This document shows positions 3,681 through 40,846 of a stretch of DNA of 40,846 nt, one piece after another. Each line of letters opens with the position of its first letter. Position 1 is the stretch's first letter. The notes beneath the pieces are model-generated. The model had not been told where the DNA came from, ran no database searches, and saw only the letters and a program-made list of their open reading frames with translations. Made by a program: the position numbers and the translations under genes. This DNA is from a virus. The stretch spans positions 1-40,846 of IMG/VR virus record IMGVR_UViG_3300027839_000024; one strand, 5' to 3'.

Positions 3681-3947
3681 TTAGTCCGAGAACTTACGGG
3701 CCAACATCCATTTGATAATTACCGACACTAAAATTTGAATCACCCAAATTGGTACCGGATAAGCATTGCAGATTTCTGTTACGATTCTTTTTTTTGCCCA
3801 CTTTTTTTCTGCGCTGTTACCTTCGATTAAACTCCCCCATCGCTTTGCAATCAATCGAACCGCCATCCTCGAGATAGGTTTGTGAACTCGGGCTAACCAC
3901 GGCCCTCGTTGGCTAATTGTTTCCTGCAAGCCGCGAAGCGTAGGCAT
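3681..3947 (-). CDS. hypothetical small membrane protein
   Basis: 88 aa, basic N-terminal two thirds and one C-terminal membrane segment (about residues 64-82). The start shares one base with the stop of the upstream phosphoesterase (TAATG), so it is translated by re-initiation. It is the distal gene of the three-gene minus-strand unit. Function unknown; a tail-anchored partner of the phosphoesterase is possible. Confidence 0.65.
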   Translation of the reverse strand: MPTLRGLQETISQRGPWLARVHKPISRMAVRLIAKRWGSLIEGNSAEKKWAKKRIVTEICNAYPVPIWVIQILVSVIIKWMLARKFSD

Positions 3948-6336: not shown

Positions 6337-6340
6337 TTTT

Positions 6341-22486: not shown

Positions 22487-23109
22487 AACAAAAATCATAC
22501 GTAGTCACGGGTGGCAGTCGATCCTATGGTGCATCCATCTCTCATGCGCTACGCTCTCGAGATCATATTGTGTACGATATCCAAAGGCATATTCGACCAA
22601 TGCTAGAAGATATTTTCGATTCACAACTAGAATTGAAGTATTGGATATCGTGCGATTTTTCGCAAGCACATGATACCGTGTCGGCAGCTACTCACCTATT
22701 AGATCAAAAGATAAAACTAAATGGTATGGTTCATGCCGTAGCTTGCCACGAGGCAATAGACCCCCGATTGATAAGTACGCTCGACATGGCAAAGCATTTT
22801 ACCGTAAATGTGTTTGGCCCTTTGTTGTTTACTTTGTACTGCCATCAAGCAAACGTGTTACCTCAAGGTTCTCGGGTCATCTTTTTGTTAGACCAGCGGA
22901 AATCGGACAACTCGCAGATTATGTATAGCGCGGCAAAGTCATCGACCCAAGCTATCGTGTCGCAATTCTACCCTCTATTTGATTCCGTGGATTTTATGTT
23001 TGTGGCTATGCCTAATCGAAGGGTGCCTAGCGGGGATGATGCAGAGGATACAATTGTAAACCTCTTGCAAAACGAATCTTGTTCAAATGACGCACTACTA
23101 ATTGTGTAA
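22483..23109 (+). CDS. short-chain dehydrogenase/reductase (SDR)
   Basis: 208 aa. The cofactor-binding TGGSRSYG is at residues 9-16 (the usual TGxxxGIG with Ile-to-Tyr), NVFG at 109-112 and the catalytic Y148-SAA-K152. The protein is shorter than typical SDRs (about 250 aa), with a shortened C-terminal substrate lobe. Probable NAD(P)-dependent oxidoreductase acting on a sugar or other alcohol; it may serve the glycan pathway (inference). Co-translated with the RpoA-CTD-like gene. Confidence 0.82.
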   Translation: MKQKSYVVTGGSRSYGASISHALRSRDHIVYDIQRHIRPMLEDIFDSQLELKYWISCDFSQAHDTVSAATHLLDQKIKLNGMVHAVACHEAIDPRLISTLDMAKHFTVNVFGPLLFTLYCHQANVLPQGSRVIFLLDQRKSDNSQIMYSAAKSSTQAIVSQFYPLFDSVDFMFVAMPNRRVPSGDDAEDTIVNLLQNESCSNDALLIV

Positions 23110-23888: not shown

Positions 23889-24551
23889 ATGTCGGACGAT
23901 ACAAAAAAACTTGTTGACCTTGTAGCTGCTTTGGCCGAGTCCCCCATCGACCCTTCGGAGACTCCCCACGGTCCCGAAGATGCTACCCCTATGTTGGAGG
24001 TTACCGGGAAAGCGCGCTCACTTTCTAGCGAAGAAAAAAAGTGGCAAGCGTTTGAGTGGTCCATGATGGGGCACGATACCAAAGGTATCGCAAAAATGTT
24101 TGACGTTACCCCGTCCACGATTTATAGGTGGTTGCAGGATTTGTATCGCGAACATCGGCAGACAATCGAGCAGGTACCGGGTGCAGATGTACTTTCGGAG
24201 CATCTATTGTGGTTAGGCAAACTCGAGCAGATTTGTCTGCATGAAATAAACTTAATGCGTGAGGATTCCACTACTATCGACCCAGCCACGGGGGTAGTTA
24301 GTCGTAATGATGATTCGAGAATGAAATCGGTTCGTGTAAAGTTTATGCAGGCAGCCTTACGAGCGCGGCAAATGAAAATTGAGATGTTACAAAAAGCAAA
24401 TGTGCTTCCTGTAGAACCCGAAAAAATATATCACACTATGGCAGATGAACGGCGCAAAGATACCGAGGAAGAAAAGAAGGATCGCGAGAAGACACGGGCA
24501 GAAATTGAGCAGAGCATAGAAAAGCTAATCAAACGGGGTTTGTCGCTTTGA
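23889..24551 (+). CDS. terminase small subunit (putative)
   Basis: 220 aa. Residues about 60-92 form a helix-turn-helix (MGHDTKGIAKMFDVTPSTI, then YRWLQDL), used by small terminases to recognise packaging sites, followed by a helical oligomerisation-like region and a charged C-terminal tail that would contact the large subunit. Directly upstream of, and overlapping, the large subunit gene, which is the strongest support. Confidence 0.8.
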   Translation: MSDDTKKLVDLVAALAESPIDPSETPHGPEDATPMLEVTGKARSLSSEEKKWQAFEWSMMGHDTKGIAKMFDVTPSTIYRWLQDLYREHRQTIEQVPGADVLSEHLLWLGKLEQICLHEINLMREDSTTIDPATGVVSRNDDSRMKSVRVKFMQAALRARQMKIEMLQKANVLPVEPEKIYHTMADERRKDTEEEKKDREKTRAEIEQSIEKLIKRGLSL

Positions 24552-26239
24552 GTACATCCGAATCGTTGCGGGAAATTAAAGACCGCGATTTGTTAGTATT
24601 GGAGAAGTTGCTTCAAGTAAAAGAGGCAAGGTTAAATTTTGCGCTAAAGCATCATCGAAATACCCACGATGAGCCAATGGACTTCGACCACTTCCCACAC
24701 ATTCGGGATTTATACAATAGCACAGCGCGTGAAATGGTTTTGATGGGCAGCGTGCAAAGTTTCAAAAGCGAATTTATTGTAATTGATCATTTAGCGTGCG
24801 CTTACGTGGGGCTATCAGTTTTTTTCGTAGTGCCTAAGTACGAGATGCGCAACACTTACGTCCAGAACCGTGTTGATCGTTGTGTGCAAAACGTAAAAGA
24901 GTATAAAAGAATCATGGGTGCAGGTTTCTTCGATTCGATGGCAATCAAGTCATTTGGAAAGGGGGTGATCAAGTACGTTGGGAGTAATGTAGTATCCGAC
25001 TTCAAGGAGTTTCCTGCTGATGTAATTGTCGTCGAGGAAGTCGATGAATGTAATTTAGACAACATTGAATATGCAATGGATAGATTGCGGGCATCTAAGT
25101 ATCAATTCAAAAGATACTTAGCAAACCCGCGAATTAAAAACAGAGGTATCCATGAAATGTTTATGAGGTCTGACCAGAGAGAATGGGAAATTCCCTGTAG
25201 CAAATGCGGGGAGTTTCACGAGACGGATTGGTTTACAGTTGTGGTGGAGGAAATTGTCGATGCGGAAGGTAATGTCATCGACTTTAAATTACGAGATGAC
25301 GAGTGGGCCGAAGGTTGTAAGCGCGACATCGACATGATCTGTCCCACGTGTGGGGGCGCCCTTGAGCGTTCGAGCGCTTTAGGTCATTGGGTACCGGGTA
25401 ACCCTTCTTCGCAAGTCGAGGGCTATCACCTATCCATGCTGTGCAACATGATCAATCCCATAGCTGGGATGTGGGATAGGTTTTCACGTGCAATCACCGA
25501 TCCTGGTTTGATGCAGCGATTCTTTAATTCCGATTTGGGACTTCCGTTCGATGCTATCGGAAACAAAGTCACCCCGACGATGCTTGACAATTGCACAATG
25601 CCGGGTGATGGCGCTTACAATTTTGTGGTTCATTCAGATTGCGCCCATGTTAAAGGAAACTCACACCCCGGCCCCTGCTCTATGGGCGTGGATGTGGGAG
25701 CTACGCTCGATGTGCGCATCAGTTATTTACGCTCTCGTGGGGAACGGCAGGCGGTGTACGTTGGCAAGGTTCGCAGTGTGGATGATATCTACGACTTAAT
25801 CCAACTTTACAACGTCGAAAAAGCCGTAATGGATTCGATGCCTGAGATAACCCTAGCGGCTGATTTTCAACTTGGCGCGGGGGAGCTAGGTTGTGAAGCG
25901 TGGTTATGCCGTTATGCCAAAGAGGGCAGCGACCGCCGGCGAACTTACGATTTAATCAATCGAATAATAAACGCAGACCGGACTGAAGTTTTAGATAGAA
26001 GTTTTGCGCAAATACGCCTAAAAAAGAATTTACTCCCTAACAACTATCATGCTATACTAGGCGGCGTGTACACCGCAGAAATGACTACCCCAATCCGAAA
26101 AATTGTGGAGGATGTAGCGGGCAATCCAAGATACGAGTGGTCAAAGGGGAAGGATCACCAGCGGCACGCCGATACTTACGACATGCTAGCCGCAATGATT
26201 ATGATGGAAACCACTATCGACGATATTTCAATAGGATGA
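24548..26239 (+). CDS. terminase large subunit (GpA-like, with zinc finger insert)
   Basis: 563 aa DNA-packaging motor. The Walker A region is GSVQSFKS (67-74), with Phe where Gly usually precedes the Lys. Walker B is DVIVVEEVDE (158-167). A four-Cys zinc insert lies at 217/220/265/268 (CSKC, CPTC). The nuclease half has MGVDVGATLDV (D382), VMDS (D429) and a late HADTYDM, giving the RNase H-like acidic triad. ATPase powers translocation and the nuclease cuts concatemers. It overlaps the small subunit gene by four bases. Confidence 0.92.
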   Translation: MSTSESLREIKDRDLLVLEKLLQVKEARLNFALKHHRNTHDEPMDFDHFPHIRDLYNSTAREMVLMGSVQSFKSEFIVIDHLACAYVGLSVFFVVPKYEMRNTYVQNRVDRCVQNVKEYKRIMGAGFFDSMAIKSFGKGVIKYVGSNVVSDFKEFPADVIVVEEVDECNLDNIEYAMDRLRASKYQFKRYLANPRIKNRGIHEMFMRSDQREWEIPCSKCGEFHETDWFTVVVEEIVDAEGNVIDFKLRDDEWAEGCKRDIDMICPTCGGALERSSALGHWVPGNPSSQVEGYHLSMLCNMINPIAGMWDRFSRAITDPGLMQRFFNSDLGLPFDAIGNKVTPTMLDNCTMPGDGAYNFVVHSDCAHVKGNSHPGPCSMGVDVGATLDVRISYLRSRGERQAVYVGKVRSVDDIYDLIQLYNVEKAVMDSMPEITLAADFQLGAGELGCEAWLCRYAKEGSDRRRTYDLINRIINADRTEVLDRSFAQIRLKKNLLPNNYHAILGGVYTAEMTTPIRKIVEDVAGNPRYEWSKGKDHQRHADTYDMLAAMIMMETTIDDISIG

Positions 26240-26245
26240 TTAAAA

Positions 26246-27331
26246 ATGCCATTCGCAGGGTATGACAATTTTTCCGCGTGTGTTGCCGATCAAAAAACGC
26301 AGGGGCATTCCGATTCCGAAGCGCGTGCCATTTGTTCATCTGTGGAGCAGGAATCAAAAACCTATGAAGGCAAAGCCGGCGCACTTTATGAGAAAAAAGG
26401 CGAGGGTAAATACCGACAAAAATCAGCCGGTTACTACCGGAAGGCGGCTAAAGGATTTTTGGTACTTAAAAAATCTATAGTCGAGGTGGCTAAATCACCA
26501 ATTGATTCTTCGTCTCTGCCTAATTCAGTGGCTAGTCCTAAGCAGGGCGTAGACCCAAATAAAAAAAATAAGGATAAGAAGAAACAGTATAAAAGTGTAC
26601 AAGAGTTAGTATCAAAAGGCGGCCCAGGTAGTGGTGTGTATGATCGCGAAAAACCAAAACCCGAAAGACCGGAATCCAAAAAGAAGAAACCCGGTGGCAC
26701 TAGGCTTACTCCAGCACAAATCAAAGCTAGGGTAGAAGCTACGTCAGCGTCTCGAAAAAAAAAGAAAGATGCCAGAGATGCAAAGGTAAAAAAGAAAGCC
26801 AAGGAAACGGTAGATAAAGAAAAGAAGGAGGCCGCCAAGAAAAAAAAGGAAGCGGAAGATAAAGCAAAGAAAGAAAAAGATAAGAGAGACCGCGAAAAGT
26901 TTTTAGCAGATCGTATGAAGCGACTTGCAGGCGGTGCAAAAGGAGGTGGTGCAAAAGGCGGTGGTGCAAAAGGCGGTGGTGCAAAAGGCGGTGGTGCAAA
27001 GGGGGGCGGTGCAGCCGGCGGTAGAAAAGTCGGTGGTGCATCTAGTGGTGAGGGCAATTATAAAAAGCAAACAAAACAAGATCGCAGCAAGTTAGACACA
27101 AAAGACAAAAAAGAGGATAAGGAAAAAAAGCTAAAACCTCTTTCTGAAATGACCGATGCCGAATTGGCCAAAGAGTACAAGAAAGAATTTCCAAAAGGTT
27201 CCGATAGATTGGGTCCAAGAAATCGGGATGTGGTTATTAAAAAGTTACAGGATAAGCGAAAAAAAAACTTAACCAAAACCAAAACCAAAACCAAAAAAAG
27301 TACAAACCCTAAATCGAGTCGTTACACATGA
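26246..27331 (+). CDS. Lys-rich repeat-containing head-region protein
   Basis: 361 aa. The N-terminus MPFAGYDNFSACVADQ is a short motif seen at the start of several phage head-region proteins. Around residue 128, SKGGPGSGVYD resembles the GGPGSG motif of phage head or protease proteins. Residues 150-225 are extremely Lys/Glu-rich and helical. Residues about 228-253 are tandem GGAKG repeats. The tail is KTKTKTKK. It lies between terminase and portal and overlaps the portal by ATGA. It may be a scaffold, a DNA-condensing head protein or a processed cargo; no direct evidence distinguishes these. Confidence 0.75.
   Translation: MPFAGYDNFSACVADQKTQGHSDSEARAICSSVEQESKTYEGKAGALYEKKGEGKYRQKSAGYYRKAAKGFLVLKKSIVEVAKSPIDSSSLPNSVASPKQGVDPNKKNKDKKKQYKSVQELVSKGGPGSGVYDREKPKPERPESKKKKPGGTRLTPAQIKARVEATSASRKKKKDARDAKVKKKAKETVDKEKKEAAKKKKEAEDKAKKEKDKRDREKFLADRMKRLAGGAKGGGAKGGGAKGGGAKGGGAKGGGAAGGRKVGGASSGEGNYKKQTKQDRSKLDTKDKKEDKEKKLKPLSEMTDAELAKEYKKEFPKGSDRLGPRNRDVVIKKLQDKRKKNLTKTKTKTKKSTNPKSSRYT
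26932..27015 (+). repeat. 15-bp tandem coding repeat (GGAKG)
   Basis: About five units of GGTGCAAAAGGCGGT, three nearly identical, encoding GGAKG. The high DNA identity indicates recent slippage, so copy number may vary. Confidence 0.9.
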
Positions 27332-29130
27332 GCAGTAAATCGGAAATCTTAACCGAGGGTGAATTAGCAGACGCTATACAAACCAGCGCCAGCGAATCAA
27401 GCGGTGAAAATATAATTGAGGAAGTTTTCATCACCGGCGATGACCGTATGGCATCGTCTGCGGATTTACAAAAAGAAATGATCAGGCAAAGCATGTCCTG
27501 CTTTGACTCTGACCGCATCCACAAAGAGACTAACAATTCTACTTTGTTGGATGTTATGAAATCAGCCGCCGAGGGGTCAACTCAAAGTGAGGATGAACTT
27601 GGGTATCCTGAATTTTCGTTGTCTGCTACGCAAGTTGTCGAGCCTCCCTACCCGCCCGAGTTGCTTGCCACATTTCTTGAGGTGGACCCAACCCATTTTC
27701 GATGCGTGAAAACAAAAACCGTTGATGCGGTGGGCCGCGAATACTCGCTTGAGCCTATCGTTAATGTAATGTCAGACGAAGAAGCTGAAAAGTTAGTTGG
27801 CTTTAGTGACCGGCTAAAACAATCGGGTGTGACCACCCCCGCTGTGCGTCAATCCGAAGTTGAAGCCGAAGTGGACACGGTGAATCGTTTTATTGGCGAT
27901 TGCAACGAGTTGATCGGATTTGAAGGCGTACTGTTTCGTGCGTGTATGGATTACGAAGCGGTGGGGTGGGCGGCAATAGAAGTTATTCGCTCCGCTGATA
28001 TGAAAGTTAGAAAAATTGCCCATATACCTTCTACCCGAATCCGTCCCCTTCGGGGATGGCATGGTTACGTTGAAATCTTATCCGATTCTAAATTTGTTTA
28101 TTACCAACCTTTTGGTAATAAAATTGTTTCCGCAGATCGTTCGCCGCTTACCGGCAAACCCGAGGTGTATGACCCCGCACGCAATGGAAAGTTGACTGCT
28201 AATAACAAATTAAGTTGGAATATGATTGACCGTGAAACGGGCAAACCCACTAATAGTTTTGCGAAGTCTGCGAACGAAGTAATTTGGATTCCTAAACATC
28301 ACGCGGCCACAATTTATTATGGATATTCCGATATCGTACCAGCGCTTGGGGACGTTTTAGGAAACGTACATATTCGTGATTTCATGCTCCAATTTTTTGA
28401 GCATAATACAGTGCCACGATACGCGGTGATTATTGAAGGTGCAAAACTTTCAAAGGATGTAAAGGATGCCATCATGCAATATTTTGGGCAGCATGTAAAA
28501 GGCAAAGCACACAAAACCCTAATCATTCCGATTCCGGCGATGCGAGGTGAAGTAAAGTTACGATTTGAAAAACTCGCTGCCGATGCACAAGAGGGATCAT
28601 TTCAAGACACTCGCAAAAACAATGCGCAGGGCATTATGACTGCGCACGGTGTATCGCCTGCCATTATCGGAATTGCAGAAAGTTCTGAGCTAGGATCGGG
28701 TAAGGGATTGTCTCAGGCAGAGATTTACAAAGATCGAATTGTTACGCCATCACAACGTGTGTGGGAACATCATTTGAATCGACTTCTTAAACTAGGACTA
28801 GGCACCCAGCTTATTCGATTAAAGTTTAATCCTCTAGATATCCGCGATAGGGAAGCAGAAAAAACTGTGTTCCTATCATACCTTGAAAAGGGTGTGATGA
28901 CCATAAATCAAGTTGCGAAGCGTTTGGGTCTTGCGCCGGTTGAAGGTGGCGACAGAAACTTTATTCTATCACCCCAAGGCCCTATTTTTGTTGACGAACT
29001 AACACAAGCAGCGGGTGTTGAAAAACAAGCGTTAGAAGATCAAATAGAAGAATTAAAATCTGAACTTGATGCGCCGGATATAACGGGTGACACGATGCCT
29101 GTTAAACCCATCAAAATACCCGACGAATAA
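27328..29130 (+). CDS. phage portal protein
   Basis: 600 aa, within the portal size range. The region from about residue 165 to 540 has portal-family features: the FRACMDYEAVGWAAIEVIR wing/stem segment, HIPSTRIRP, WIPKHHAATIYYGYSDI, a long helix with DTRKNNAQGIMTAHGVSPAIIG, and the crown-like C-terminus. Twelve copies form the channel through which DNA enters the head. Placed between the Lys-rich protein and the MuF giant, the standard order. Confidence 0.9.
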   Translation: MSSKSEILTEGELADAIQTSASESSGENIIEEVFITGDDRMASSADLQKEMIRQSMSCFDSDRIHKETNNSTLLDVMKSAAEGSTQSEDELGYPEFSLSATQVVEPPYPPELLATFLEVDPTHFRCVKTKTVDAVGREYSLEPIVNVMSDEEAEKLVGFSDRLKQSGVTTPAVRQSEVEAEVDTVNRFIGDCNELIGFEGVLFRACMDYEAVGWAAIEVIRSADMKVRKIAHIPSTRIRPLRGWHGYVEILSDSKFVYYQPFGNKIVSADRSPLTGKPEVYDPARNGKLTANNKLSWNMIDRETGKPTNSFAKSANEVIWIPKHHAATIYYGYSDIVPALGDVLGNVHIRDFMLQFFEHNTVPRYAVIIEGAKLSKDVKDAIMQYFGQHVKGKAHKTLIIPIPAMRGEVKLRFEKLAADAQEGSFQDTRKNNAQGIMTAHGVSPAIIGIAESSELGSGKGLSQAEIYKDRIVTPSQRVWEHHLNRLLKLGLGTQLIRLKFNPLDIRDREAEKTVFLSYLEKGVMTINQVAKRLGLAPVEGGDRNFILSPQGPIFVDELTQAAGVEKQALEDQIEELKSELDAPDITGDTMPVKPIKIPDE

Positions 29131-29147: not shown

Positions 29148-32100
29148 ATGCCTGTTACTAAGGTGTACGATAAAATCAGCGAGCGTGCCCGCCGTCTTTT
29201 TGTCCTTCGGTCAGCTACCGAAGGATCACGCATCGTACTAGAGCGCGAATTTCAACGTGAAATGTCGCGTAAAATCTCGCGTATTCTTGGCGAGGTATCC
29301 CGCACAATTACGGATGATGGTACGCTCGATATTTGTGTGAAGCAAGCGCAACTTGTAAAACGATTACCTTACAAAGAGCGCGCCCCCGTAATTAAAGATT
29401 TTCTAAGCACGGCGTTTAACCCTGCAAGATTTCCAGACCTTAGCACTTCGGAAGAAGTGCGCGGGGCGCAGTCCACGTACACTAAATGGTTTCATATTAT
29501 GTACGAGCTAGGCGCGGTCGCCGGCTTGCGGTCGATGGGGTACAACGGATCGTCTGTTTTAGTGGAGCGCGCACAAAAGAGAATTGAAGTTAAGAAAGGA
29601 TTTTTCGATAAGGTAATTTATGAACTAACAGATGCCGAAATACTAAATCAGTTAGAAAATCGAGAGGTTCTTTTTGGTCGGGGTATTAGCAGAGATACTA
29701 TTCTAGATGCGAGGGGTATGGTCAAATCCGATATATTTTTGGGCAATTCTACTGCGATGGAAGTAGCCGAAAAATTGAAGGTGAAATATCATATCCCATT
29801 AGTGCGGGGTGAAAAAATCGCACGCACAGAAACACAGCAAGCGTTTAATGGTGCGTGTAATGATATGTATCGTCGCAGTGGTGTTAAATACCACACTTGG
29901 TCTACGGTGGGTGACGACCGAGTACGTCCGGAACATTTAGATAATGACGGCTCAAAAGTTGAAATGGGAAAAGAATTTCCATCGGGGCAACTTCATCCAG
30001 GTGACGGCCCATTATCTATAAATTGTCGGTGTAGCGTATTTCCGGATTTATCAGATAAACGTATTTTACTAGAACCATGGCAAGGTGGCCCTGGTGGCGA
30101 TTCTACCACGGTGGGGGATCAAGGATCACCGTCTAACCCCACTACGATCACGGGTGAAACCGATCCTAATTTGACGGGATTAGGTACTTCAAGACCCGAT
30201 CCACGCAAGCGGGTGCTTACACCCGCACAACGAGCAACTGCGCGATTAAAAGTTATCACAAGTGTAAAAAAAGAAGTAGAGGAAGCGATAACTAAAGTTG
30301 AAAAGCGATTGATTGAACTTAGGCGACGAACCCGACGAACCAAACCTAGATTTGACCCTTCGGTAACACCTCAACAAATTGCAAACGCAGAGGAAGCGCT
30401 GTGGGATACCCGCAAACAATTACAATACGTCGATGACTTACTATCTGAAGAACGTGTGCAATTGCACGCTGCCCAACTTCGTACTACGGCCACCAAAATA
30501 CACGGGGACACCACCGGTGAAGTATTTGGGGCTACTTTCAATATGGATGGGACCGTGTATGAGGGCACCGATGCCATCACAACTTTAAAGAGTTTTAATC
30601 TTACGCATGAGCAGGTTGCATCGGGACAATTTGAGAGTTTACTTAGAAATTATGAAGCTATTTATCGCGAACTTGCAGACGTTCCCGCAGGTCAACAATT
30701 AAAAATTGGCATCTTTAAAATGCCCGATGGTAAAGTTTCAATTGATTTTAATATTGCTACGCCTAAACGATCCGTAGCAAAACAAATTGCAACTTTAAAT
30801 AATCAGGATAGTTTTTGGGATGCCGCTAAATTTGAAGTGGTCCCTACCGGCGGTACGGGGCAAAGCGTAATTAAAGACGCACAAATTATTGAGTTAATCA
30901 AGAACATCGACGAAGTAGAGGCGATGCCTTTAAAAAGTGCTAATCCGTGGGTACTACGCGGTGAGAATATCACAGATTTTAAGACACTAGAGCAGGTTGA
31001 AGCAATGGATCAGGCTATTGTGGATGCGTTTAGAACACGGGAGACAACCGAGCAATTATTTGTAACTGCACACCGTATTGAAGATGGCACCCCCATTTAT
31101 ACACCCGCACGGGCTACGCTACACGATGAAATTATAGTCGCTACTTTAGAGGGCAGCAGCGCCGTTGATGAACCTGTTTCGATAATGATGGGCGGGGGTT
31201 CAGGTGCGGGAAAAGGCACAGTCCGTCGAAGTGGGAAGATGGACCTACCTCAAAATTTAGCTACAGTAAATTCCGACGATATAAAAGAGATGATTCCGGA
31301 ATATACGCACATGGTGGACAATGGCGACGATGCGGCAGCAGCTATTGTTCACGCTGAATCATCCGATGTGGCGAGGCGTGCATTAGACGAAAGCATTGAA
31401 TCGGGTAGAAATACAATGCTAGATGGTACGGGTAATAGTAGCATGGCAAAAGTGCAAGGGCGCGTTGATCGATTACGTAAAACAGGGAATAGAGTAGAGG
31501 CGCATTATGTCACAATCGACATGGACGAAGCATTTAAACGCGCAACACAAAGAGCAAAAGATAAAGGGCGCAAGGTGCCCGATGATATTATAAAAGGTAC
31601 ACACGAGGGTGTGAGTAAAATTTTTCCTAAGTTGGTAGACGAAAATGTATTCGACGAAGTTACCTTGTGGGATAACATGGGAAAACCCCCCACAAAAATT
31701 CTCACTCAAAAAGATGGCATAACTACTATCCACGATGCCGACAAATGGGAATCCTTTTTACGGAAAAATCCAGACTATCGGCCCAACAGTTGGGTACCAA
31801 AACCGGGAACACAGATCGACGATTTAACTTCATTCGATAGACACCGAATTTCTAGCTTCACGGAAAACGGAAGAACTAAATTTACTCCTTCCAGAACATC
31901 TATGCATGATGAAATTGTCGATGAAATAATTTCAGTAAATCGAAACAATGAATTAGTAACAGCGGTAGATGAACCAGTATCATATATGATGGGCGGCGGT
32001 TCGGGTTCGGGTAAAGGCACCCTATTAGATGTTAAACAATCTGCGGGTGATTTAGGCGTCCCGGTGAATACTGCAATTGTAGATTCTGACCGGGTGAAAG

Positions 32101-35100
32101 ATTACCTTCCCGAATATCAAACGATGTTAGAGGCGGGCGACCCTAAAGCGGCTATGATTGTTCACGATGAGTCATCGCATATTGGAACCGTTGCGGTGCG
32201 TGAGTCGATGCGCAGAAATCAAAACACACTCATAGACGGTACGGGTGATGGTGGGTATGGGGCATTACGTGAGAAAATAAAAATCTTACGTGAAACTGGA
32301 AATAAAGTAGAAGCAAATTATGCCACTATTGATACTTCTCTGGCGGTTGCTCGTGCCGAAGAAAGAGCGCGCAAATCGGGGCGTGCTGTCCCTAACGCTG
32401 TTATCAAAAGAACACACGAGCAAGTAAGCAAAGTTGTTCCCAGAGCGTTAGACGAAGGATTGTGGGACAAATTTACGCTATGGGATACCACCGATGCGCT
32501 AAATGGCAACGCTACTAAAATTTTATCTTTGGACGAAGGTCGTATCTTTATTCACGATGCAGAAAAGTGGGAATCGTTCCTAAGAAAAAATCCAGACTAC
32601 ATACCCAATAGTTGGAAATCGGCGCGGGAACTTCCAGAATTACAAAGAGTTGCACGACTAAACCCCGATGATTTCATACCGCCTGTTTCTTTAAAAGAGG
32701 CAGACGATTTTTTAGTGCGGTCTACTTTGAGCGACGACCCCGAATTACTTTCTTTGTTACCCGAAAGAACCCGACAATGGATTGCAGAAAGCAAGGCACT
32801 CTATGACCCCGATTTACCGGTTCGGGGCGTTGGTATTGCTAAACCTTCCCCCAATGGTGTGAAGTTTAATGTAAGTCAAGGTCGCGCTGATTTACCAGAT
32901 ATCGATGCGGTAGGTTTTATAGCCAGATCGGATGATAATAAAATTTATGCGTATGGTGTTGTAGATGGCAAAATTAAACCCATTGCGATTAGTAAAGAAC
33001 ATCTATTTGACCCCGATTTAATAGGCTTACAGGGTAGAAAGCGCGCCATTTCAAAACTAAATGAACTACAGACTAGGGTAGATAAGTTTGAAGTAGCCAT
33101 TGAGATGTTGGGTGGTACGCCAACCCCCGAGGGCGCTGTAAAATTTGAAGCACTAAAAAAAGAGTTAGAACTGATTACCAAAAAGCGCGCTTATATGAAA
33201 CGATATGACCGCGTGCTAACTTTGGATGATTTGCGGTATGAAAAACTTATATCCGACGATCTGTTTAGGGCCGCAGACATGCGTCGAAAGTTAATGACGC
33301 ATGAACTAGGGCACACCATGCAATTACCTTCAGACGGTATGTCGGGTATGCCGGCGGCTAGGCGAAGTTTTGTTCAAGCTACGCATACTGTAAGTGAGGG
33401 TGCAAGGCAAGAACTGCTTACATTAGTAGACGCATCTAAACTAGACGGCGCATTTGAAGGTATGCAGAATGTTACGGTAGGTAATAAATTAAAAATCAAT
33501 TTTACTAACCAGCGCGAAACGTGGGCAGATTTAGTTGCCATTTATACGGACCCTCAAAAAAATGTAATTTTAAAACATGCTATGCCCGAAACTTTTCAAA
33601 ATTTAGAAGCAATGCTGGGAAAGCTACCCTACAAGGTACCCGATATAGTAGATGAACGACTATCAAACGTAATTAAATATGCGGCGTTAGACAAGGACAG
33701 AAACAATCGCATACTGAAGGGTTTGCAGGCACAATATAATTTAACAATTGATGATGTTGATGACATTTTTAGGCGATTTTCCAGCGTAGATGTGCGGGCC
33801 ATCGCCCAAAATCCAAACCTACTAGATGATGTTGTGAATGATGCGTTGTACATCATAAAAACCGCCCAAGATTCGATGGACCCCAAGCATAGAGTTTTGA
33901 TGAGCGTTACAGCTAAACGTACGCAAGAACTTACCGATACAAATTTGGCGAGATGGCACGCTACCTTAAAGGGAGAGCAAGGACTTTTATCAGACGAAGT
34001 AAACGCGATAGCTAAAAATCAAAAACTTCACCGGGCAGAATGGCCGCACTCACGAGTCGAAAAAGAGATGCGAGAGTTGAGGCAGCGGATGCGCACGCTT
34101 CAGGACACGGATACGCTAATCAGAGCAGAGCAGCGACATCGCGAATTAAGGCTTGCTTCGGGGAGAGTAGCCGCCCCTCCTGAGCCATTTAGCCAGCGCT
34201 CATGGAATCCAACTTCAACACGAGACTACTTAGATTATGGCGTGCATCCCACTATTGCAGATGACATTGTAGAGTTGACACCTACGGAACATTTGCAAAG
34301 AGCAAAATATATTTTAGAACAAGATTTAGCATCCCCTGAAAACGTAGCTTTACGAGTTGCTATGGATGATGTGTTAGCAGGTAAACCGTTGCCACCAAAC
34401 GCAACTTTACAAACTGTAAATGATCGAGTAACGGCGCGTGTTTATTTAAAACACTTAGACGATGCCGACAAGACACCACATAATTTATATGTAGGCATTA
34501 ACAGTGACACGGGGACTATCTTCTTTCCACGTACACAGCGGGGGATCGTTGGGGACGTTATACAATTGCCAGTAGGCGAGGGGGAGTCCCTCACGTTATC
34601 GAAGGTTACGACTAATTTAACCTCTAGCAAGTCACGTGCTATAGAGGATGCCCTATCGGACGGCGCGAACGATGGTGTAGTTTTTAAAATTCGGGCCGGC
34701 GCTGATGCGCAACGTATGGGAGATCGAGCGACCGTTGCTGACTTATTGGATGGGGGCTTAAACAAGCCAGAAAATTCACGCGCTAAAAATCAGGTACTCA
34801 ATAGATTGTTTCCCGATGCTAAGGATGAGCGCTTAAGAGCTGGCGCTTTTACCTATCGTACAATTGAGGACGCAGACGATGTAGCTACGCGGATGTTATT
34901 TGAAGACGCAAAAACATTATACTTTGATTTGCATGGTGAAACTGCTGAGTCAATAACTCATACTAAGGCAGAAGCGATGCGTCAATTACTTAAAGGCAAC
35001 GATGCGAGCGTTTCCCCTCGGGAGTTGCAACAGCTTATCGACAAAGCGGGTAGACTACATCCTAAAGAACGAGCCAGCCTGTTTGAATTTCAACAGCAGT

Positions 35101-38100
35101 ATGTGTCCGAATATCGAGCAAGAGCGCAAGCAAGGGCGTTACTTAATGAATTAGACCGTGCGCCGGTGTCTGTGGATTCGGTGTACGTCCCCTTTCCAGA
35201 CGGTCTACGTATCATCGACACCGATTTGTTAGTGCCGGGGAAGGTGCTAGAGATAGGCCAGCCAACCGGGAAGGCCGAAGCATTTTTACGGCTAAACGGC
35301 CCCACACCCGGAAAGGTTAAACCTAGCGATTTAATGGCTACGCAAGATTCGGTATTAACACGCGGATTATCGACACGCAAGGCGGCATTAGGGGATACTA
35401 TTTACGGTATAGATGACCCGATGAAAGATACCGCAATAATGTTCAAGGTGGACAATCCAAAGGGTATAAAGCGCGAACCTAAATTTAAGGCATATCGACG
35501 GGGGGAAGGTCGGGTAAGCAAACCACACGAAATGCTAATGGCGGGGGAGTTTAGAGTAAAGAGTGTACAAAAAATTGATGGTGTATTGGAAGTTAATGTG
35601 GAGCATATCCCACCTAAACTTTCCACCGACATAATACCCCAAAAAACAATAACAGGTGCGCCAGATGAATTTGCAACGCATGGGGAATTTAAAGTTGTAG
35701 GGGTAACCAAAAAAAAATCATATATTGAAGTTGAGTTAAGTCAGATTCCAACGGATCGCAGTAGGATTAAAACTTTCCATACGGGGGATTTTATAGATGC
35801 GGATGCAAATATAATTGTTCGGGAGTTGATAGAAGAAAAATCATACAGTCAACTTTTTGCTGAAGCGCAAAACGATATTTTAGTAGGTGAAAAAGTAGTT
35901 AAGGGGACTAGACCTACCGCGATGTTAAAACGCGATTTAGACGCGGTGATTAACGGTGAACCATTACCTAAAAATGCAAGCGGCGCACTTATAGAGCGTA
36001 GAACGAAGGCGCGCATATTTTTAAACGAATTAGACAGCACAGACGAAGTGCCTTCGCACTTATATCGAGGTGATCGTGCCATAAGTCGTTCGGGAAAGGA
36101 TATGCGGGAAGTAACACTAGGTCAAGAGATAGAAATAAATGATCGAACGATTGTTACGGGACTAACAACCGATCCAAAGGTGGCACAAAAATTTGCGCTA
36201 GATCGAGGCGAAGAAAATTGGCCTCCCGTAGTGTACAAGGTTAGACCGGGGGCGAAGGCGCAAAAACTATTTGAAGACATCGACGCTATCGACTCACGAA
36301 TTTTAGAGATGGGGAGCGAGGCAACCCCTGAGTATGCCTTAGCACTAAGACAGAAACGTGAACTTAGAGCAAAATTAACCGCGCTTCAGGAAGACGAATA
36401 TTATACAGCGGGAAAATTCCGCGTAGTTGGAAAACGAGAGATACCTATCGACGATTTAGACATTTCCCAAGTTATGGATACTCGACGCAATTTTACAATC
36501 CCCGATGGCGTAGAGGAACACATTATAGAAATTGAAGTGGAGTATGTACCTTTAACCGACGATGTTTTAAAACCTGCCGCAGATATTCCTAAACCGTGGC
36601 AACACAACACCCAAGCAGAGGAGGTACCACGATGGTTTGTAGATCAATTTGCAGACGTAAAACCTCCCACTTCGAGTGCAGGCCGGAAATCGTTAGATGC
36701 TCTTAAAAAAGACATTTTAGAACACGGTATTTTAGACCCAATTGAAATTTCCATCGACGATGCGGGCCGCGCTCTTGTTACAAATGGTAATCGGCGCTTA
36801 ATCGCTGCAAAAGAATTAGGTATAGAAGATGTGCCGGTCGTAGTTAAAAAACAAGATGGTGCCCTAGCACGGAAGGTAAACGTAAAGGACAAATTATTCG
36901 ATCCTGATTGGAAACCCACAACCGTGGGAGATTATTTCGATGACGAAATGTTTGAACTAACTACAACTAAAGTTGCGAAGCAATGGGCAATGGACGGCAC
37001 CGGCCCTAAATATGAAACCATAACCTTATTTGAGGATTTGTACCCTAATTCTCGCCTGGGCGGTTTTGGGGCACGAGGTGAAGCAAAAACAACGAAAGAA
37101 GCAATCGAGCTATTATCGAAGCGGGGGACCACGGGCATAACTTCTGGTAATGACCGCCTACGGCGAACTCTCAACGATATATTTGAGGGCACGGTTGATC
37201 GGTCTGGGGATACCCTCAAGATACAGCCCGGGGGTGGATTTACGGAAATTGTCGGCGAATCATTTTCAAATTTTGTAAAGCGTCACATACGCCATGCCGA
37301 AACGCTTGAGAAAGCCGGCGATGCGGCACAAGCCAACCACGTAAAAACTCAACTTGTAAGAATGATGCGTCAACGGGCAGAAGCACGTGCTATTGCTCAC
37401 AAGCTAGCTACCGAAGCAGACATCATGCCTGTGGCGTTGTATAGGGGCACCGGAAATCAGCATGGTTTAATCAATAGTCGATTGTATAATTCCATAGGTT
37501 CATGGGATGATTTAGAACCCGGTCAAGTCATAGAGTTGGGAGGTAGAAAATTCACAACGGGCTTAACTCGAGATGAGGATATGGCGCTTCATTTTGCGTT
37601 TCAGTCGGGGACACGCCACGAAGGTGCCATAGTTTGGAAAATTAAACCGGGCGCACGTGCTAAGCGGGTGTTATCGATAGATGATGTGGGAGCATCCTTC
37701 CAAAATGAAGATGAGTTTATGGCAGCGGGTAACTACACCGTCACAAAGAAAACCAAAAAAGTATACCAAAGCGGTCCCTACAGTGATGTTCCAAAGGACT
37801 ATCTTGAAATTGAACTCGAATGGCAACCTTTAAACACGCCGTCTTCTGTTGACCCTAAACTTGTCGGTATTGAAAAATTTAAAAGACTACAACAAAACGA
37901 AGGTAATGTGCGTCTGCCTACTAAAACAAAATTGGTTCAAAGCGAATTGGGTATTCCCGAAACCGGAAAACCGTTTGAATTTACTTATGCACATAATACA
38001 GAAAGCGCAGTTGATTATGGTAAACGGTATGGGCAGCATGTAGAACCATCTGGAAAATATGTAACTGTTGTAAACCCTAAAAATGTGGTAGATCAGCCTA

Positions 38101-40846
38101 CAATTGAAACAGGAATTATCACACTTGAAAAGCCTTTAGTTGTAGATTTTGGGGCGGGTTACTCAGACGCTACTAATTGGAAATATGTTTTAAGCGAACG
38201 ATTCGGGGGTAAGACGGGAAGGGAACTAAGCGAAGCAATCACGGATGCGGGGTATGATGGAATTGTTACGGTAACTGAAACGAGAGGAACTAAACACACT
38301 TCAGAAATTATAGCCCTTAGAAAAAATCCTGATCGACCACTACACGCACTAAGTCCCGGCAGGGAACTCCGCCCCTCTGAGGTATTTGATGCTATAAAAT
38401 CCCCCGATGAATTACTATCCATCCAAACGCAACGGGCGGCAGTTATTGCAGAGGAAAGATTAAAGGAAATAGCTCGCATTAGGGACATAGCCGCAGTCCA
38501 AGACGTAGCCGCGCAACGACTAATGGAATTAGAGGCTCGATACGTTAGGGCAGATGTGGCAATACAAAAAGCAAGAGCAGAGAGGGCACAAGTAAAAGCA
38601 AAAGTTGATGCTGTAAATAGTCAAATTAAAAAAATAAAACAGGGGATAAAAGAAGGCGTGTTTGAACCTGAAGATTTAAACTCTTTGTATGAAATGCGAG
38701 AGGTGGCGGTTGGAAAGTTTCAAGCATGGGACGATGAGGTAAACCAGCTAATTGATGTTGACGCATCTTTGAGAAGCGGCTTAATTACCCCTAGTCAAGC
38801 CGATGCGGCAAGCAGTCCCACGTTTTTTGACAAGCTACTGAGAGAATCATCGGCACAGTTGGAGGAAGCAACTGAACTTATAAACAAAAGGGAAGGTGTA
38901 AAACAACTAAAACTTTTTGAGACGGTTGAATCAGATATTTTAAAGACTTTGAAAGCTGACTTAGCAAAAATAGATGATGTTATGCAAGCAGAAATACACG
39001 CGGTAGATGCTGCGCAAGAGGCCGCAGAAAAATTGATGGACGCGATAACTAAATCCGAAAACGCACAATTAGAACTAAACTTTGCCGAAGCTAAGGTGGT
39101 TACGTCCGAAGAAAAATTGGTAGGCGCTGCCAAGTTAAAAGCAGACGCCACCCAATTTAATAACGCCGAAGATTTTATAGGGGCGGTCCTAGATTCTGAA
39201 GAAACAACTACGGTTTATACTGTGCGACGGGTGAGTGCAAAAAAAGTGCCTTTCCCAGATGAGGCCCCAGACGGGCATATCCGCATGTATAGAGGTGTGA
39301 ACCCCGATAGGATTGAGGGTCGGGGTAAAGGCAAGTACGGGGGGACTAAACTAGATGCCGAGGGGGGTGGCGTAGGGCGATGGTACACAACCGATTATGA
39401 AGAAGCGGTCTCGTATGCAAATTGGGATTTGGAGACTACGGGAGAGCTAGGACCGAATCGGGCAATACTAGCAGTTGATGTTCCAAACGAGGATGCCGTA
39501 GTGTTTGCAAGGCGAGGAAGTAGGACTCATTTAGATGAGGATGATTTTCTAGCTGGCGGTAGGTCAGAGGCACTTCTTGATGGTGATTATGCGTCACGGT
39601 CGGTTCTGTACGAAGGCGATGAAATTATCGCGGGGAAAGACGCACCCCATTTAGCTGCGAAAGAAATAGAAATTACAATCCCATCCGAGCCAAAAAATTG
39701 GGATTCAATAAATCGCGATTATAAGAATCGAACGGGTGAATTTGGAACTACCTCACGCACATCTACTGAAGTTAAAACGATAGATGGTATTCGTTATGAA
39801 TCATACGCAGACACGGGGGAAATGTTAGAGGGTTTGGGTTATGAACATATGGTAGCTATCCGTGAATCGGATGATCGTGTGGTGGGTACTTTATTTTACG
39901 GCCCAGATGTAAAAGACCCTACCGAAGTGGGCATTAAGGGTGCGGTAGGAGTTGCACCAGATATGCGCCGGCGGGGTATTGCAACAAATATGTATGATAT
40001 GGGCGAAGAAGTAACGGGGGAGGTTTTCAAACCGGACATCCCCCATTCGCCAGATGCACAAGCGTTTTGGAAAAGCAGGCAGGCTAAAAAAGATATTCCA
40101 AATAACACACGGTTTATTACCGATAAGAAAATGGCGAACCAACTAGCCGCTATGGATGATTCTATGGAGGTTGTTTCCTACGAACTGCCAGTTTCAAGTT
40201 TACAAGATGACGCTCCTTCGATGGTTAAATACTCAAAAGGTGTAGACAATCCAAAAATTAAAAAGCTAGAAAACACTTTCTTAGAAGTATCGCAAGAGAC
40301 AAGCGATCCTGTGACTAAGGGGGTAAGGTACACGGATAAAAAAACAGGCGGCGGTTTAATGAACAGGTCAAACCTTAACCTCGATAAGTTGACTGACGAT
40401 GAACACTCTGAACTTGTAGACTTATGGGACTTTGGACTGCAACAACCGCTTGAGGTTCCTTCAGACGCAAAATTTGCATTTACCTTAGAAGGTGAACAGC
40501 AGCACGAGCGATTACTTGAGTTGCTAACAAAGGCATCGAAAAATGGCGTAGTCAGAGAGGAAATAGAGTTTGTTGGTACACCGGTCTGGGCAAGTAGTGA
40601 CGGGCAAATTGCGTTTAACCCTTTAACGCAGCAAGTCGATAACGTACCCTATCCAATGGCACCTAAGCCACGAGGTAGTGTACGTATTGTCGATGATATA
40701 CCTGCGAGCCAAGCCGACAGCCTTGATGACGCTGCCGCTGCAAAAGTAACAGGAGGGATGACCGAAGATGAATTTATGAAGAAGCATAAAACGGGAGATA
40801 TTTCATCAGACTGGAGTTACCGGGCAGGCGGGCTTGATCATTTAGT
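29148..40846 (+). CDS. giant MuF-fused polyvalent protein (3' end outside window)
   Basis: At least 3,899 aa with no stop; I translated every codon from the ATG at 29148 (17 bases after the portal stop, AAGGGG upstream) to the window end. Domains with rough residues: MuF/SPP1-gp7 head morphogenesis 150-305; coiled coil 360-430; unknown domain 450-590; two zeta-toxin-like kinases 655-883 and 916-1157; HELGH zincin with zinc ligands 1385, 1389 and likely Glu1457; helical region 1500-1730; ART-like modules 1770-1905, 2005-2165, 2295-2470, 2755-2900 and 3375-3510; ParB-like 2490-2575; ART-PolyVal-type 2940-3062; coiled coil 3085-3345; GNAT 3540-3650; uncharacterised tail. MuF proteins are packaged in the head, so this is probably injected with DNA and acts on host defences (inference from known polyvalent proteins). 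It ends outside the window. Confidence 0.93.
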   Translation, partial: MPVTKVYDKISERARRLFVLRSATEGSRIVLEREFQREMSRKISRILGEVSRTITDDGTLDICVKQAQLVKRLPYKERAPVIKDFLSTAFNPARFPDLSTSEEVRGAQSTYTKWFHIMYELGAVAGLRSMGYNGSSVLVERAQKRIEVKKGFFDKVIYELTDAEILNQLENREVLFGRGISRDTILDARGMVKSDIFLGNSTAMEVAEKLKVKYHIPLVRGEKIARTETQQAFNGACNDMYRRSGVKYHTWSTVGDDRVRPEHLDNDGSKVEMGKEFPSGQLHPGDGPLSINCRCSVFPDLSDKRILLEPWQGGPGGDSTTVGDQGSPSNPTTITGETDPNLTGLGTSRPDPRKRVLTPAQRATARLKVITSVKKEVEEAITKVEKRLIELRRRTRRTKPRFDPSVTPQQIANAEEALWDTRKQLQYVDDLLSEERVQLHAAQLRTTATKIHGDTTGEVFGATFNMDGTVYEGTDAITTLKSFNLTHEQVASGQFESLLRNYEAIYRELADVPAGQQLKIGIFKMPDGKVSIDFNIATPKRSVAKQIATLNNQDSFWDAAKFEVVPTGGTGQSVIKDAQIIELIKNIDEVEAMPLKSANPWVLRGENITDFKTLEQVEAMDQAIVDAFRTRETTEQLFVTAHRIEDGTPIYTPARATLHDEIIVATLEGSSAVDEPVSIMMGGGSGAGKGTVRRSGKMDLPQNLATVNSDDIKEMIPEYTHMVDNGDDAAAAIVHAESSDVARRALDESIESGRNTMLDGTGNSSMAKVQGRVDRLRKTGNRVEAHYVTIDMDEAFKRATQRAKDKGRKVPDDIIKGTHEGVSKIFPKLVDENVFDEVTLWDNMGKPPTKILTQKDGITTIHDADKWESFLRKNPDYRPNSWVPKPGTQIDDLTSFDRHRISSFTENGRTKFTPSRTSMHDEIVDEIISVNRNNELVTAVDEPVSYMMGGGSGSGKGTLLDVKQSAGDLGVPVNTAIVDSDRVKDYLPEYQTMLEAGDPKAAMIVHDESSHIGTVAVRESMRRNQNTLIDGTGDGGYGALREKIKILRETGNKVEANYATIDTSLAVARAEERARKSGRAVPNAVIKRTHEQVSKVVPRALDEGLWDKFTLWDTTDALNGNATKILSLDEGRIFIHDAEKWESFLRKNPDYIPNSWKSARELPELQRVARLNPDDFIPPVSLKEADDFLVRSTLSDDPELLSLLPERTRQWIAESKALYDPDLPVRGVGIAKPSPNGVKFNVSQGRADLPDIDAVGFIARSDDNKIYAYGVVDGKIKPIAISKEHLFDPDLIGLQGRKRAISKLNELQTRVDKFEVAIEMLGGTPTPEGAVKFEALKKELELITKKRAYMKRYDRVLTLDDLRYEKLISDDLFRAADMRRKLMTHELGHTMQLPSDGMSGMPAARRSFVQATHTVSEGARQELLTLVDASKLDGAFEGMQNVTVGNKLKINFTNQRETWADLVAIYTDPQKNVILKHAMPETFQNLEAMLGKLPYKVPDIVDERLSNVIKYAALDKDRNNRILKGLQAQYNLTIDDVDDIFRRFSSVDVRAIAQNPNLLDDVVNDALYIIKTAQDSMDPKHRVLMSVTAKRTQELTDTNLARWHATLKGEQGLLSDEVNAIAKNQKLHRAEWPHSRVEKEMRELRQRMRTLQDTDTLIRAEQRHRELRLASGRVAAPPEPFSQRSWNPTSTRDYLDYGVHPTIADDIVELTPTEHLQRAKYILEQDLASPENVALRVAMDDVLAGKPLPPNATLQTVNDRVTARVYLKHLDDADKTPHNLYVGINSDTGTIFFPRTQRGIVGDVIQLPVGEGESLTLSKVTTNLTSSKSRAIEDALSDGANDGVVFKIRAGADAQRMGDRATVADLLDGGLNKPENSRAKNQVLNRLFPDAKDERLRAGAFTYRTIEDADDVATRMLFEDAKTLYFDLHGETAESITHTKAEAMRQLLKGNDASVSPRELQQLIDKAGRLHPKERASLFEFQQQYVSEYRARAQARALLNELDRAPVSVDSVYVPFPDGLRIIDTDLLVPGKVLEIGQPTGKAEAFLRLNGPTPGKVKPSDLMATQDSVLTRGLSTRKAALGDTIYGIDDPMKDTAIMFKVDNPKGIKREPKFKAYRRGEGRVSKPHEMLMAGEFRVKSVQKIDGVLEVNVEHIPPKLSTDIIPQKTITGAPDEFATHGEFKVVGVTKKKSYIEVELSQIPTDRSRIKTFHTGDFIDADANIIVRELIEEKSYSQLFAEAQNDILVGEKVVKGTRPTAMLKRDLDAVINGEPLPKNASGALIERRTKARIFLNELDSTDEVPSHLYRGDRAISRSGKDMREVTLGQEIEINDRTIVTGLTTDPKVAQKFALDRGEENWPPVVYKVRPGAKAQKLFEDIDAIDSRILEMGSEATPEYALALRQKRELRAKLTALQEDEYYTAGKFRVVGKREIPIDDLDISQVMDTRRNFTIPDGVEEHIIEIEVEYVPLTDDVLKPAADIPKPWQHNTQAEEVPRWFVDQFADVKPPTSSAGRKSLDALKKDILEHGILDPIEISIDDAGRALVTNGNRRLIAAKELGIEDVPVVVKKQDGALARKVNVKDKLFDPDWKPTTVGDYFDDEMFELTTTKVAKQWAMDGTGPKYETITLFEDLYPNSRLGGFGARGEAKTTKEAIELLSKRGTTGITSGNDRLRRTLNDIFEGTVDRSGDTLKIQPGGGFTEIVGESFSNFVKRHIRHAETLEKAGDAAQANHVKTQLVRMMRQRAEARAIAHKLATEADIMPVALYRGTGNQHGLINSRLYNSIGSWDDLEPGQVIELGGRKFTTGLTRDEDMALHFAFQSGTRHEGAIVWKIKPGARAKRVLSIDDVGASFQNEDEFMAAGNYTVTKKTKKVYQSGPYSDVPKDYLEIELEWQPLNTPSSVDPKLVGIEKFKRLQQNEGNVRLPTKTKLVQSELGIPETGKPFEFTYAHNTESAVDYGKRYGQHVEPSGKYVTVVNPKNVVDQPTIETGIITLEKPLVVDFGAGYSDATNWKYVLSERFGGKTGRELSEAITDAGYDGIVTVTETRGTKHTSEIIALRKNPDRPLHALSPGRELRPSEVFDAIKSPDELLSIQTQRAAVIAEERLKEIARIRDIAAVQDVAAQRLMELEARYVRADVAIQKARAERAQVKAKVDAVNSQIKKIKQGIKEGVFEPEDLNSLYEMREVAVGKFQAWDDEVNQLIDVDASLRSGLITPSQADAASSPTFFDKLLRESSAQLEEATELINKREGVKQLKLFETVESDILKTLKADLAKIDDVMQAEIHAVDAAQEAAEKLMDAITKSENAQLELNFAEAKVVTSEEKLVGAAKLKADATQFNNAEDFIGAVLDSEETTTVYTVRRVSAKKVPFPDEAPDGHIRMYRGVNPDRIEGRGKGKYGGTKLDAEGGGVGRWYTTDYEEAVSYANWDLETTGELGPNRAILAVDVPNEDAVVFARRGSRTHLDEDDFLAGGRSEALLDGDYASRSVLYEGDEIIAGKDAPHLAAKEIEITIPSEPKNWDSINRDYKNRTGEFGTTSRTSTEVKTIDGIRYESYADTGEMLEGLGYEHMVAIRESDDRVVGTLFYGPDVKDPTEVGIKGAVGVAPDMRRRGIATNMYDMGEEVTGEVFKPDIPHSPDAQAFWKSRQAKKDIPNNTRFITDKKMANQLAAMDDSMEVVSYELPVSSLQDDAPSMVKYSKGVDNPKIKKLENTFLEVSQETSDPVTKGVRYTDKKTGGGLMNRSNLNLDKLTDDEHSELVDLWDFGLQQPLEVPSDAKFAFTLEGEQQHERLLELLTKASKNGVVREEIEFVGTPVWASSDGQIAFNPLTQQVDNVPYPMAPKPRGSVRIVDDIPASQADSLDDAAAAKVTGGMTEDEFMKKHKTGDISSDWSYRAGGLDHL
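29595..30062 (+). other. MuF (phage Mu gpF / SPP1 gp7) domain
   Basis: Residues 150-305 of the giant protein. ARTETQQAFNGACNDMYRRS, TWSTVGDDRVRPEH, LHPGDGPLSINCRCSV are the three conserved blocks of phage head morphogenesis proteins, ending in the CRC box near 293-295. Confidence 0.9.
31110..31796 (+). other. zeta-toxin-like kinase domain 1
   Basis: Residues 655-883. The P-loop is GGGSGAGKGT with K689; then VNSDDIKEMIPEY, IVHAESSDVA, TMLDGTG, and a closing HDADKWESFLRKNPDYRPN. Zeta kinases phosphorylate UDP-N-acetylglucosamine or similar substrates. No epsilon antitoxin is visible nearby. Confidence 0.82.
31893..32618 (+). other. zeta-toxin-like kinase domain 2
   Basis: Residues 916-1157. 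The P-loop is GGGSGSGKGT with K956; then VDSDRVKDYLPEY, IVHDESSHIG, TLIDGTG, and the same closing HDAEKWESFLRKNPDYIPN. A duplicate of domain 1 with all the same landmarks in order. Confidence 0.84.
32775..33587 (+). other. zincin metallopeptidase domain
   Basis: The zinc helix HELGH is at residues 1385-1389, with NQRETWADLVA (Glu1457) supplying a likely third ligand. An upstream beta-rich region (about 1210-1330) precedes it. Gluzincin-like; it could cleave host proteins or process the giant protein itself. Confidence 0.75.
34455..35642 (+). other. two degenerate ART-like modules (A and B)
   Basis: Module A begins LYVGIN at residue 1780, with Val where the catalytic Arg of ARTs would be; module B begins VYVPF at about 2012, also lacking Arg. 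Both keep the later GVVFKIRAG / IMFKVDNP strand and the GEFRV-like end strand, so the fold seems kept but catalysis lost. Confidence 0.6.
36030..36557 (+). other. ART-like module C
   Basis: LYRGDRA at residue 2305 (Arg2307), a TGLTTDPKVAQKFA strand-helix, then QEDEYYTAGKFRV near 2414, with an ExE-like Glu pair. All three ART landmarks are present, so it is potentially active. Confidence 0.68.
36615..36872 (+). other. embedded ParB-like domain
   Basis: Residues 2490-2575: LDALKKDILEHGILDPIEI then VTNGNRRLIAAKELG, the ParB nucleotide-box pattern (GNRRLIAA). Confidence 0.8.
37410..37847 (+). other. ART-like module D
   Basis: LYRGTG at residue 2764 (Arg2766), TTGLTRDEDMALHFAF as the middle strand-helix, and NEDEFMAAGNYTV near 2853 with an ExE-like pair. 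Potentially active. Confidence 0.7.
37965..38333 (+). other. ART-PolyVal-type domain
   Basis: Residues 2940-3062. The FTYAHNTESAVDYGKRYGQH opening, EKPLVVDFG, a helix, then AGYDGIVTVTE and EIIALRKN at the end match the ART-PolyVal arrangement seen in phage polyvalent proteins. Confidence 0.72.
39270..39677 (+). other. ART-like module E
   Basis: MYRGVNPDR (Arg3382), GRWYTTDYEEAVSYA, then THLDEDDFLAGG; a separate, more divergent ART-like unit following the long coiled coil. Confidence 0.6.
39765..40097 (+). other. GNAT acetyltransferase-like domain
   Basis: Residues 3540-3650. AIRESDDRVVGTLFY and the acetyl-CoA loop GVAPDMRRRGIATNMYDM (RRRGIA at 3607-3612) are the GNAT signature, followed by AQAFWKSR. 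Confidence 0.78.

What the first reader, a model, noticed from the sequence alone, without database searches (positions are those of the whole stretch)
29148..40846. Giant MuF-headed polyvalent protein of at least 3,899 residues
Seen: one frame is open for 11,699 bases with no stop, and recognisable domains run along its whole length (MuF, two zeta kinases, zincin, several ART-like units, ParB-like, ART-PolyVal-type, GNAT). Known: MuF-linked toxins and phage polyvalent proteins are packaged with DNA and injected. Inference: this is an all-in-one injected counter-defence and takeover protein. A head must fit this mass beside the DNA, which makes copy number and processing open questions.
Basis: partly seen in the sequence, partly recalled or inferred. 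Interest (0 to 1): 0.95.

Follow-up and report, generated by a model that had tools for sequence, protein, structure and literature searches.

The report
Giant phage head-protein with effector cargo
An uncultured phage encodes a 4,861-residue (540 kDa) version of a small head protein that carries a long tail of mostly enzyme-like domains, probably injected into the host with the DNA; it is an extreme case of a known kind of protein and shows how much cargo one head-protein gene can carry.

Summary
The frame from 29148 runs off the window end, which is the end of its IMG/VR record. A sister record (G001, 99.94% identical over 36.6 kb) carries it to a stop: 4,861 residues, 540 kDa. Three further records carry the same C-terminal part. 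The 13 SNPs inside the frame are 10 synonymous and 3 non-synonymous, with no indel.

The gene sits in the standard MuF slot: terminase, portal, MuF, prohead protease, major capsid protein. Relatives with a 57-87% identical capsid protein carry a MuF gene of 290 to 1,732 residues. Residues 1-315 are the shared MuF core; everything after it is variable cargo. Here the cargo is two zeta-type kinases, a zincin-like HExxH unit, ART-like units (two with intact motifs, at least two decayed), ParB, a conserved phage domain, a GNAT array and a long coiled coil.

Best explanation: a MuF-type polyvalent protein (Iyer 2017), carried in the virion in few copies and ejected with the DNA. Packaging, processing and enzyme activity are untested. 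Size alone is not unique: other IMG/VR contigs hold zeta-bearing polyvalent frames of at least 5,000-6,100 residues without a detected MuF. Host not found.

The parts
23889..24551 (+). HTH protein, probable terminase small subunit
   Evidence: Pfam HTH_23 1.1e-05; weak PHROG terminase small subunit hits
24548..26239 (+). terminase large subunit (gpA-type)
   Evidence: PF05876 3.6e-19; phrog_675 2.5e-61
26246..27331 (+). 361-aa lysine-rich protein with GGGAK repeats between terminase and portal
   Evidence: translation; no Pfam hit
27328..29130 (+). portal protein, ends 17 nt before the giant gene
   Evidence: PF04860 4.1e-18
29148..40846 (+). giant MuF gene, residues 1-3899 of 4861; continues 962 residues in sister record G001 (loci L006-L008)
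29148..30092 (+). MuF head-protein core (residues 1-315), the part shared by relatives; motifs TVGDDRVRPEH and NCRC kept
   Evidence: PF04233 over cut-off; 30-44% identity to MuF genes in the same slot
31071..31793 (+). zeta-type kinase 1 (residues 642-882), Walker A GGGSGAGKGT intact
   Evidence: PF06414 1.6e-52 over two stretches; PDB 1gvn, 2p5t matches; alignment A3
31842..32615 (+). zeta-type kinase 2 (residues 899-1156), 46-50% identical to kinase 1, Walker A intact
33255..33647 (+). zincin-like metallopeptidase unit (residues 1370-1500), HELGH with downstream conserved Glu
   Evidence: aligned with HExxH tails of MuF relatives L013, L014, L025; structure model too poor to use
34350..34850 (+). 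ART-like unit 1 (residues 1735-1901), motif decayed (LYVG for LYRG)
   Evidence: 29% identical to unit 3; alignments A2, A10
35100..35582 (+). ART-like unit 2 (residues 1985-2145), more decayed
   Evidence: alignment A10
35925..36572 (+). ART-like unit 3 (residues 2260-2475), LYRG, TGLT and EDE motifs present
36672..36875 (+). ParB N-terminal-like domain (residues 2509-2576)
   Evidence: PF02195 6e-07, over cut-off
37362..37832 (+). ART-like unit 4 (residues 2739-2895), LYRG, TGLT and EDE motifs present
   Evidence: low-confidence model
   Evidence: no Pfam hit
38400..39167 (+). helical, coiled-coil-like spacer (residues 3085-3340)
   Evidence: composition
39273..39587 (+). possible further ART-like unit (residues 3376-3480, MYRG and WYTTDYEEA)
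   Evidence: motif only
39780..40067 (+). GNAT-like domain (residues 3545-3640)
   Evidence: PF00583 0.0074, below cut-off; match to a Pseudomonas phage HRDY3 protein
40317..40673 (+). uncharacterised domain (residues 3724-3842) shared with another giant polyvalent protein (L100)
   Evidence: 40% identity, E 4.7e-19
40743..40846 (+). start of the first of two GNAT-bearing repeat blocks (3866-4040 and 4071-4306); the window record stops here

Best explanation
This is a MuF minor head protein whose C-terminal tail has grown into a polyvalent effector array. Residues 1-315 probably attach it to the portal inside the procapsid, as for other MuF proteins. The remaining ~4,550 residues ride in the head in few copies and are ejected with the DNA, whole or after cutting by its own zincin unit or the prohead protease encoded just downstream. 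In the host the freed domains would act early: zeta kinases on UDP-amino-sugar precursors of the cell wall, ART-like units and GNATs on host proteins, ParB on DNA. Shown: the complete frame, its place in the head operon, variable tails on a conserved MuF core in relatives, internal duplications, and intact key motifs in both zetas, the zincin and two ART-like units. Inferred: packaging, ejection, processing and every enzymatic activity.
For: Complete 4,861-residue frame in an independent record, partial support from three more. Operon HTH-TerL-361 aa-portal-giant-protease-capsid. Complete MuF frames on 24 other contigs with related capsid genes (some near-identical to each other), plus L014 found through its terminase: same MuF core, tails from none to ~1,400 residues; tails include Pfam ARTs and a Nudix domain (L031, L021) and zincin motifs (L013, L014, L025). 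MuF-like head proteins with tandem zetas recur in cyanophage PSS2-type proteins. SNP pattern 10 synonymous to 3 non-synonymous. Literature: MuF fused to effectors, zeta fused to MuF, zincin processing, N4 virion RNAP packaged unprocessed (PMC5512222); MuF toxins and 1-2 copies of SPP1 gp7 (PMC5576092). The UDP-amino-sugar target of zeta is established knowledge of that family, not tested here.
Against: No virion proteomics. Zincin and ART-like units lack profile or structural confirmation. Two of the ART-like units have lost the motif Arg, so part of the tail may be inactive. MuF toxins were reported almost only from temperate phages (PMC5576092), while no integrase or resolvase was found in 11 records of this group (several are fragments).
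Confidence: 0.68

Rival explanations
1. Polyprotein: the chain is cut before or during head maturation by the zincin unit or the prohead protease, so the virion holds the MuF core and only some fragments; no 540-kDa protein is ever injected. (This overlaps with the best explanation and differs in the fate of the chain.)
For: HELGH unit inside the chain; prohead protease/scaffold gene next but for small ORFs; P1 DdrB is cut to 76 kDa before packaging (PMC5512222).
Against: No cleavage site could be tested; N4 virion RNAP, which also has such a domain, is packaged whole (PMC5512222).
Confidence: 0.4
2. MuF polymorphic toxin with immunity: the tail kills non-lysogens or competitors, and the small ORFs directly downstream protect the producer.
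For: Three small ORFs (79, 60, 55 aa, the last two similar to each other) lie between the giant gene and the protease gene; small ORFs after MuF toxin genes were proposed as immunity genes (PMC5576092).
Against: No integrase or resolvase in 11 records; many different domains rather than one C-terminal toxin; the small ORFs in relatives look unrelated.
Confidence: 0.12
3. Mainly structural: the long helical tail works as scaffold or internal head filler and the enzyme-like domains are decayed passengers.
For: Long coiled-coil-like stretches at 3085-3340 and 4440-4861; decayed ART-like units.
Against: Relatives with a similar capsid protein manage with a bare MuF of 290-340 residues; both zetas keep Walker A and other family residues.
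Confidence: 0.08
4. Assembly or sequencing artefact.
For: The window record ends inside a repeat.
Against: Independent records agree across the repeat with no indel; codon-position composition is uniform along the frame.
Confidence: 0.01

Closest known systems
Polyvalent proteins of phages and conjugative elements (Iyer et al. 2017, PMC5512222)
   Same: One chain joining peptidase, ART-like, GNAT, ParB and zeta-type domains, encoded among late head genes.
   Different: Tail of ~4,550 residues on a MuF head; tandem zetas plus a GNAT array; no ArdC, helicase or methylase module detected.
MuF polymorphic toxins (Jamet et al. 2017, PMC5576092)
   Same: MuF core at the N-terminus with variable C-terminal effector cargo in the portal-capsid operon.
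   Different: Many domains instead of one toxin; no sign of lysogeny in the group; no tested immunity gene.
Cyanophage PSS2 minor head protein and relatives (phrog_16619; L054, L060, L069, L066)
   Same: Head protein followed by zeta kinases, in tandem in L054 and L060, aligning with giant residues 583-1147.
   Different: 1,149-1,750 residues; without the ART-like and GNAT cargo.
Giant zeta-bearing polyvalent proteins of other IMG/VR contigs (L086, L084, L100, L085, L098)
   Same: Single frames of at least 4,872-6,101 residues with a zeta domain; L086 has ddrB-ParB, L100 shares the 3724-3842 domain.
   Different: No MuF detected with the local profile; L100 carries SNF2 helicase and methylase modules.

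Membership tests
MuF head proteins | Phage_Mu_F domain over curated cut-off | tested here: met
   47.4 bits against 29.6
MuF head proteins | gene between portal and prohead protease/capsid | tested here: met
   same slot in relatives
MuF head proteins | present in the virion, bound to portal, few copies | not testable with these tools
   needs virion proteomics or cryo-EM
Polyvalent proteins | several unrelated effector domains in one chain | tested here: met
   zeta x2, ParB, GNATs by Pfam
Polyvalent proteins | zincin-like metallopeptidase domain (common, not universal) | tested here: inconclusive
   HELGH and conserved Glu in relatives; no fold confirmation
Polyvalent proteins | ART domains (common, not universal) | tested here: inconclusive
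   motifs only; profile comparison negative; low-confidence model whose non-significant hits include many ART folds
Polyvalent proteins | delivered into the host with DNA | not testable with these tools
   inferred from the head operon only
MuF polymorphic toxins | carried by temperate phages | tested here: inconclusive
   no PF00589 or PF00239 in 11 records, but several are fragments, and transposition or plasmid-type lysogeny was not tested
MuF polymorphic toxins | adjacent immunity gene | tested here: inconclusive
   three small ORFs follow; function unknown
Zeta toxin kinases | P-loop and catalytic residues | tested here: met
   Walker A Lys, Asp and Arg positions shared by both copies and PSS2; Pfam 1.6e-52

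The most novel reading that the evidence does not exclude
The whole 540-kDa chain is packaged and threaded through portal and tail in one piece, making it one of the largest injected phage proteins, and the MuF gene of this phage group is an open-ended cargo bay that can carry from zero to about 4,550 residues.
Probability: 0.3. Interest if true: 0.75.

Novelty: new variant of a known kind. Interest (0 to 1): 0.5.

Why it matters
It gives a clean comparative series: closely related capsid proteins, one MuF slot, tails from none to ~4,550 residues. That makes the limits of protein cargo in a phage head, and the need for processing before ejection, directly testable.

Tried and rejected
Pfam, PHROGs and PADLOC on slices of residues 300-3600 gave no significant hit for zincin, ART-like or conserved-phage domains. 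PDB profile searches with the ART-like alignments found nothing. AlphaFold models of the zincin region (pLDDT 45.8) and ART-like unit 4 (43.5) are too poor to rely on; Foldseek on the latter gave no match at E <= 0.001, though many of its top non-significant hits are ART-fold chains. Profile comparison with Pfam-supported MuF ARTs failed. A combined ART4 plus conserved-domain alignment was misplaced by MAFFT and dropped. A viral scan with the ART-like units found only this phage's own records. Genome scans with the capsid and MuF alignments found no host or prophage. A size survey of PF04233 across genomes could not be run. Considered and rejected: size as unique, misassembly.

Full report
Observation. 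The frame 29148-40844 is open for 3,899 codons. The window is a complete 40,846-nt IMG/VR record. A 100% match to the MuF region led to record G001, which contains the window end. Read in the phage's orientation, the frame ends after 4,861 residues, 540 kDa and pI 5.9. The two records differ at 22 of 36,581 positions without indels; of 13 differences in the frame, 10 are synonymous. Under a rough 3:1 non-synonymous expectation this would have probability about 1e-4 (own arithmetic; the SNPs are clustered, so not independent). Three more records agree with the C-terminal part. The window record stops in a repeat of the C-terminal GNAT block. The frame is therefore real and probably under purifying selection.

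Surroundings. Upstream lie an HTH protein, a gpA-type terminase, a lysine-rich protein and the portal; downstream, after three small ORFs, come a protease/scaffold protein and the major capsid protein. This is the standard MuF position.

Relatives. Scans with the capsid protein gave 29 and then 53 loci. In those where the whole MuF frame was held and recognised, a MuF profile found it at 290 to 1,732 residues. The core aligns with residues 1-315 of the giant at about 30-44% identity, while the capsid proteins are 57-87% identical in the loci carrying a complete MuF frame. Tails carry Pfam ARTs (L031, L021), a Nudix domain (L021) and HExxH units (L013, L014, L025). L037 and L137 carry an intein in the core at or next to the NCRC motif.

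Domains of the giant. MuF, two zetas and ParB are solid. GNATs are solid in the C-terminal part. Duplications are seen for zeta, ART-like units and a GNAT block. The zincin has HELGH and a conserved downstream Glu without fold support. ART-like units 3 and 4 keep LYRG, TGLT and EDE; units 1 and 2 have lost the Arg. Neither profile nor structure comparison confirmed an ART fold. Residues 2935-3060 belong to a conserved phage domain; residues 3724-3842 are shared with L100.

How unusual is it. A zeta scan turned up five other frames of at least 4,872 to 6,101 residues, two checked by Pfam as polyvalent types. Tandem zetas behind a head-protein region occur in PSS2-like proteins. In the phage collection of 50,697 records no protein covers most of the giant.

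Mechanism. By analogy with MuF effectors and polyvalent proteins (PMC5512222, PMC5576092, PMC9503650) the chain is most likely carried in the head and ejected. One copy would occupy an estimated 0.3-0.6% of the head volume (assuming 50% DNA fill and a 50-100 kb genome). Whether it is cut first is open; both outcomes have precedents in P1 DdrB and N4 virion RNAP. Lysogeny markers were not found.

Noticed in passing
L037 6325-8265 (also L138); L137 4871-7573: MuF genes with an intein inserted in the MuF core at or next to the conserved NCRC motif; close relative L038 lacks it.
   Followed up: partly
window 26246-27331: Lysine-rich 361-aa protein with tandem GGGAK repeats between terminase and portal; strong AT skew in this kilobase.
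   Followed up: no
L042 7716-8309: Small ORFs of 79, 60 and 55 aa after the giant gene; the last two resemble each other.
   Followed up: partly
window 5398-11165, and L006 652-1848 (-): Sugar- and methyl-transferase-like genes: weak radical SAM hit, Methyltransf_24, glycosyltransferase family 2, and a family 9 glycosyltransferase after the capsid gene.
   Followed up: no
window 22483-23109: Short-chain dehydrogenase-like gene beside a ParB-like gene just upstream of the terminase genes.
   Followed up: no
window 100-1053: N6/N4 DNA methylase.
   Followed up: no
L086, L084, L100, L085, L098: Other zeta-bearing frames of at least 4,872-6,101 residues, cut by the locus ends.
   Followed up: partly
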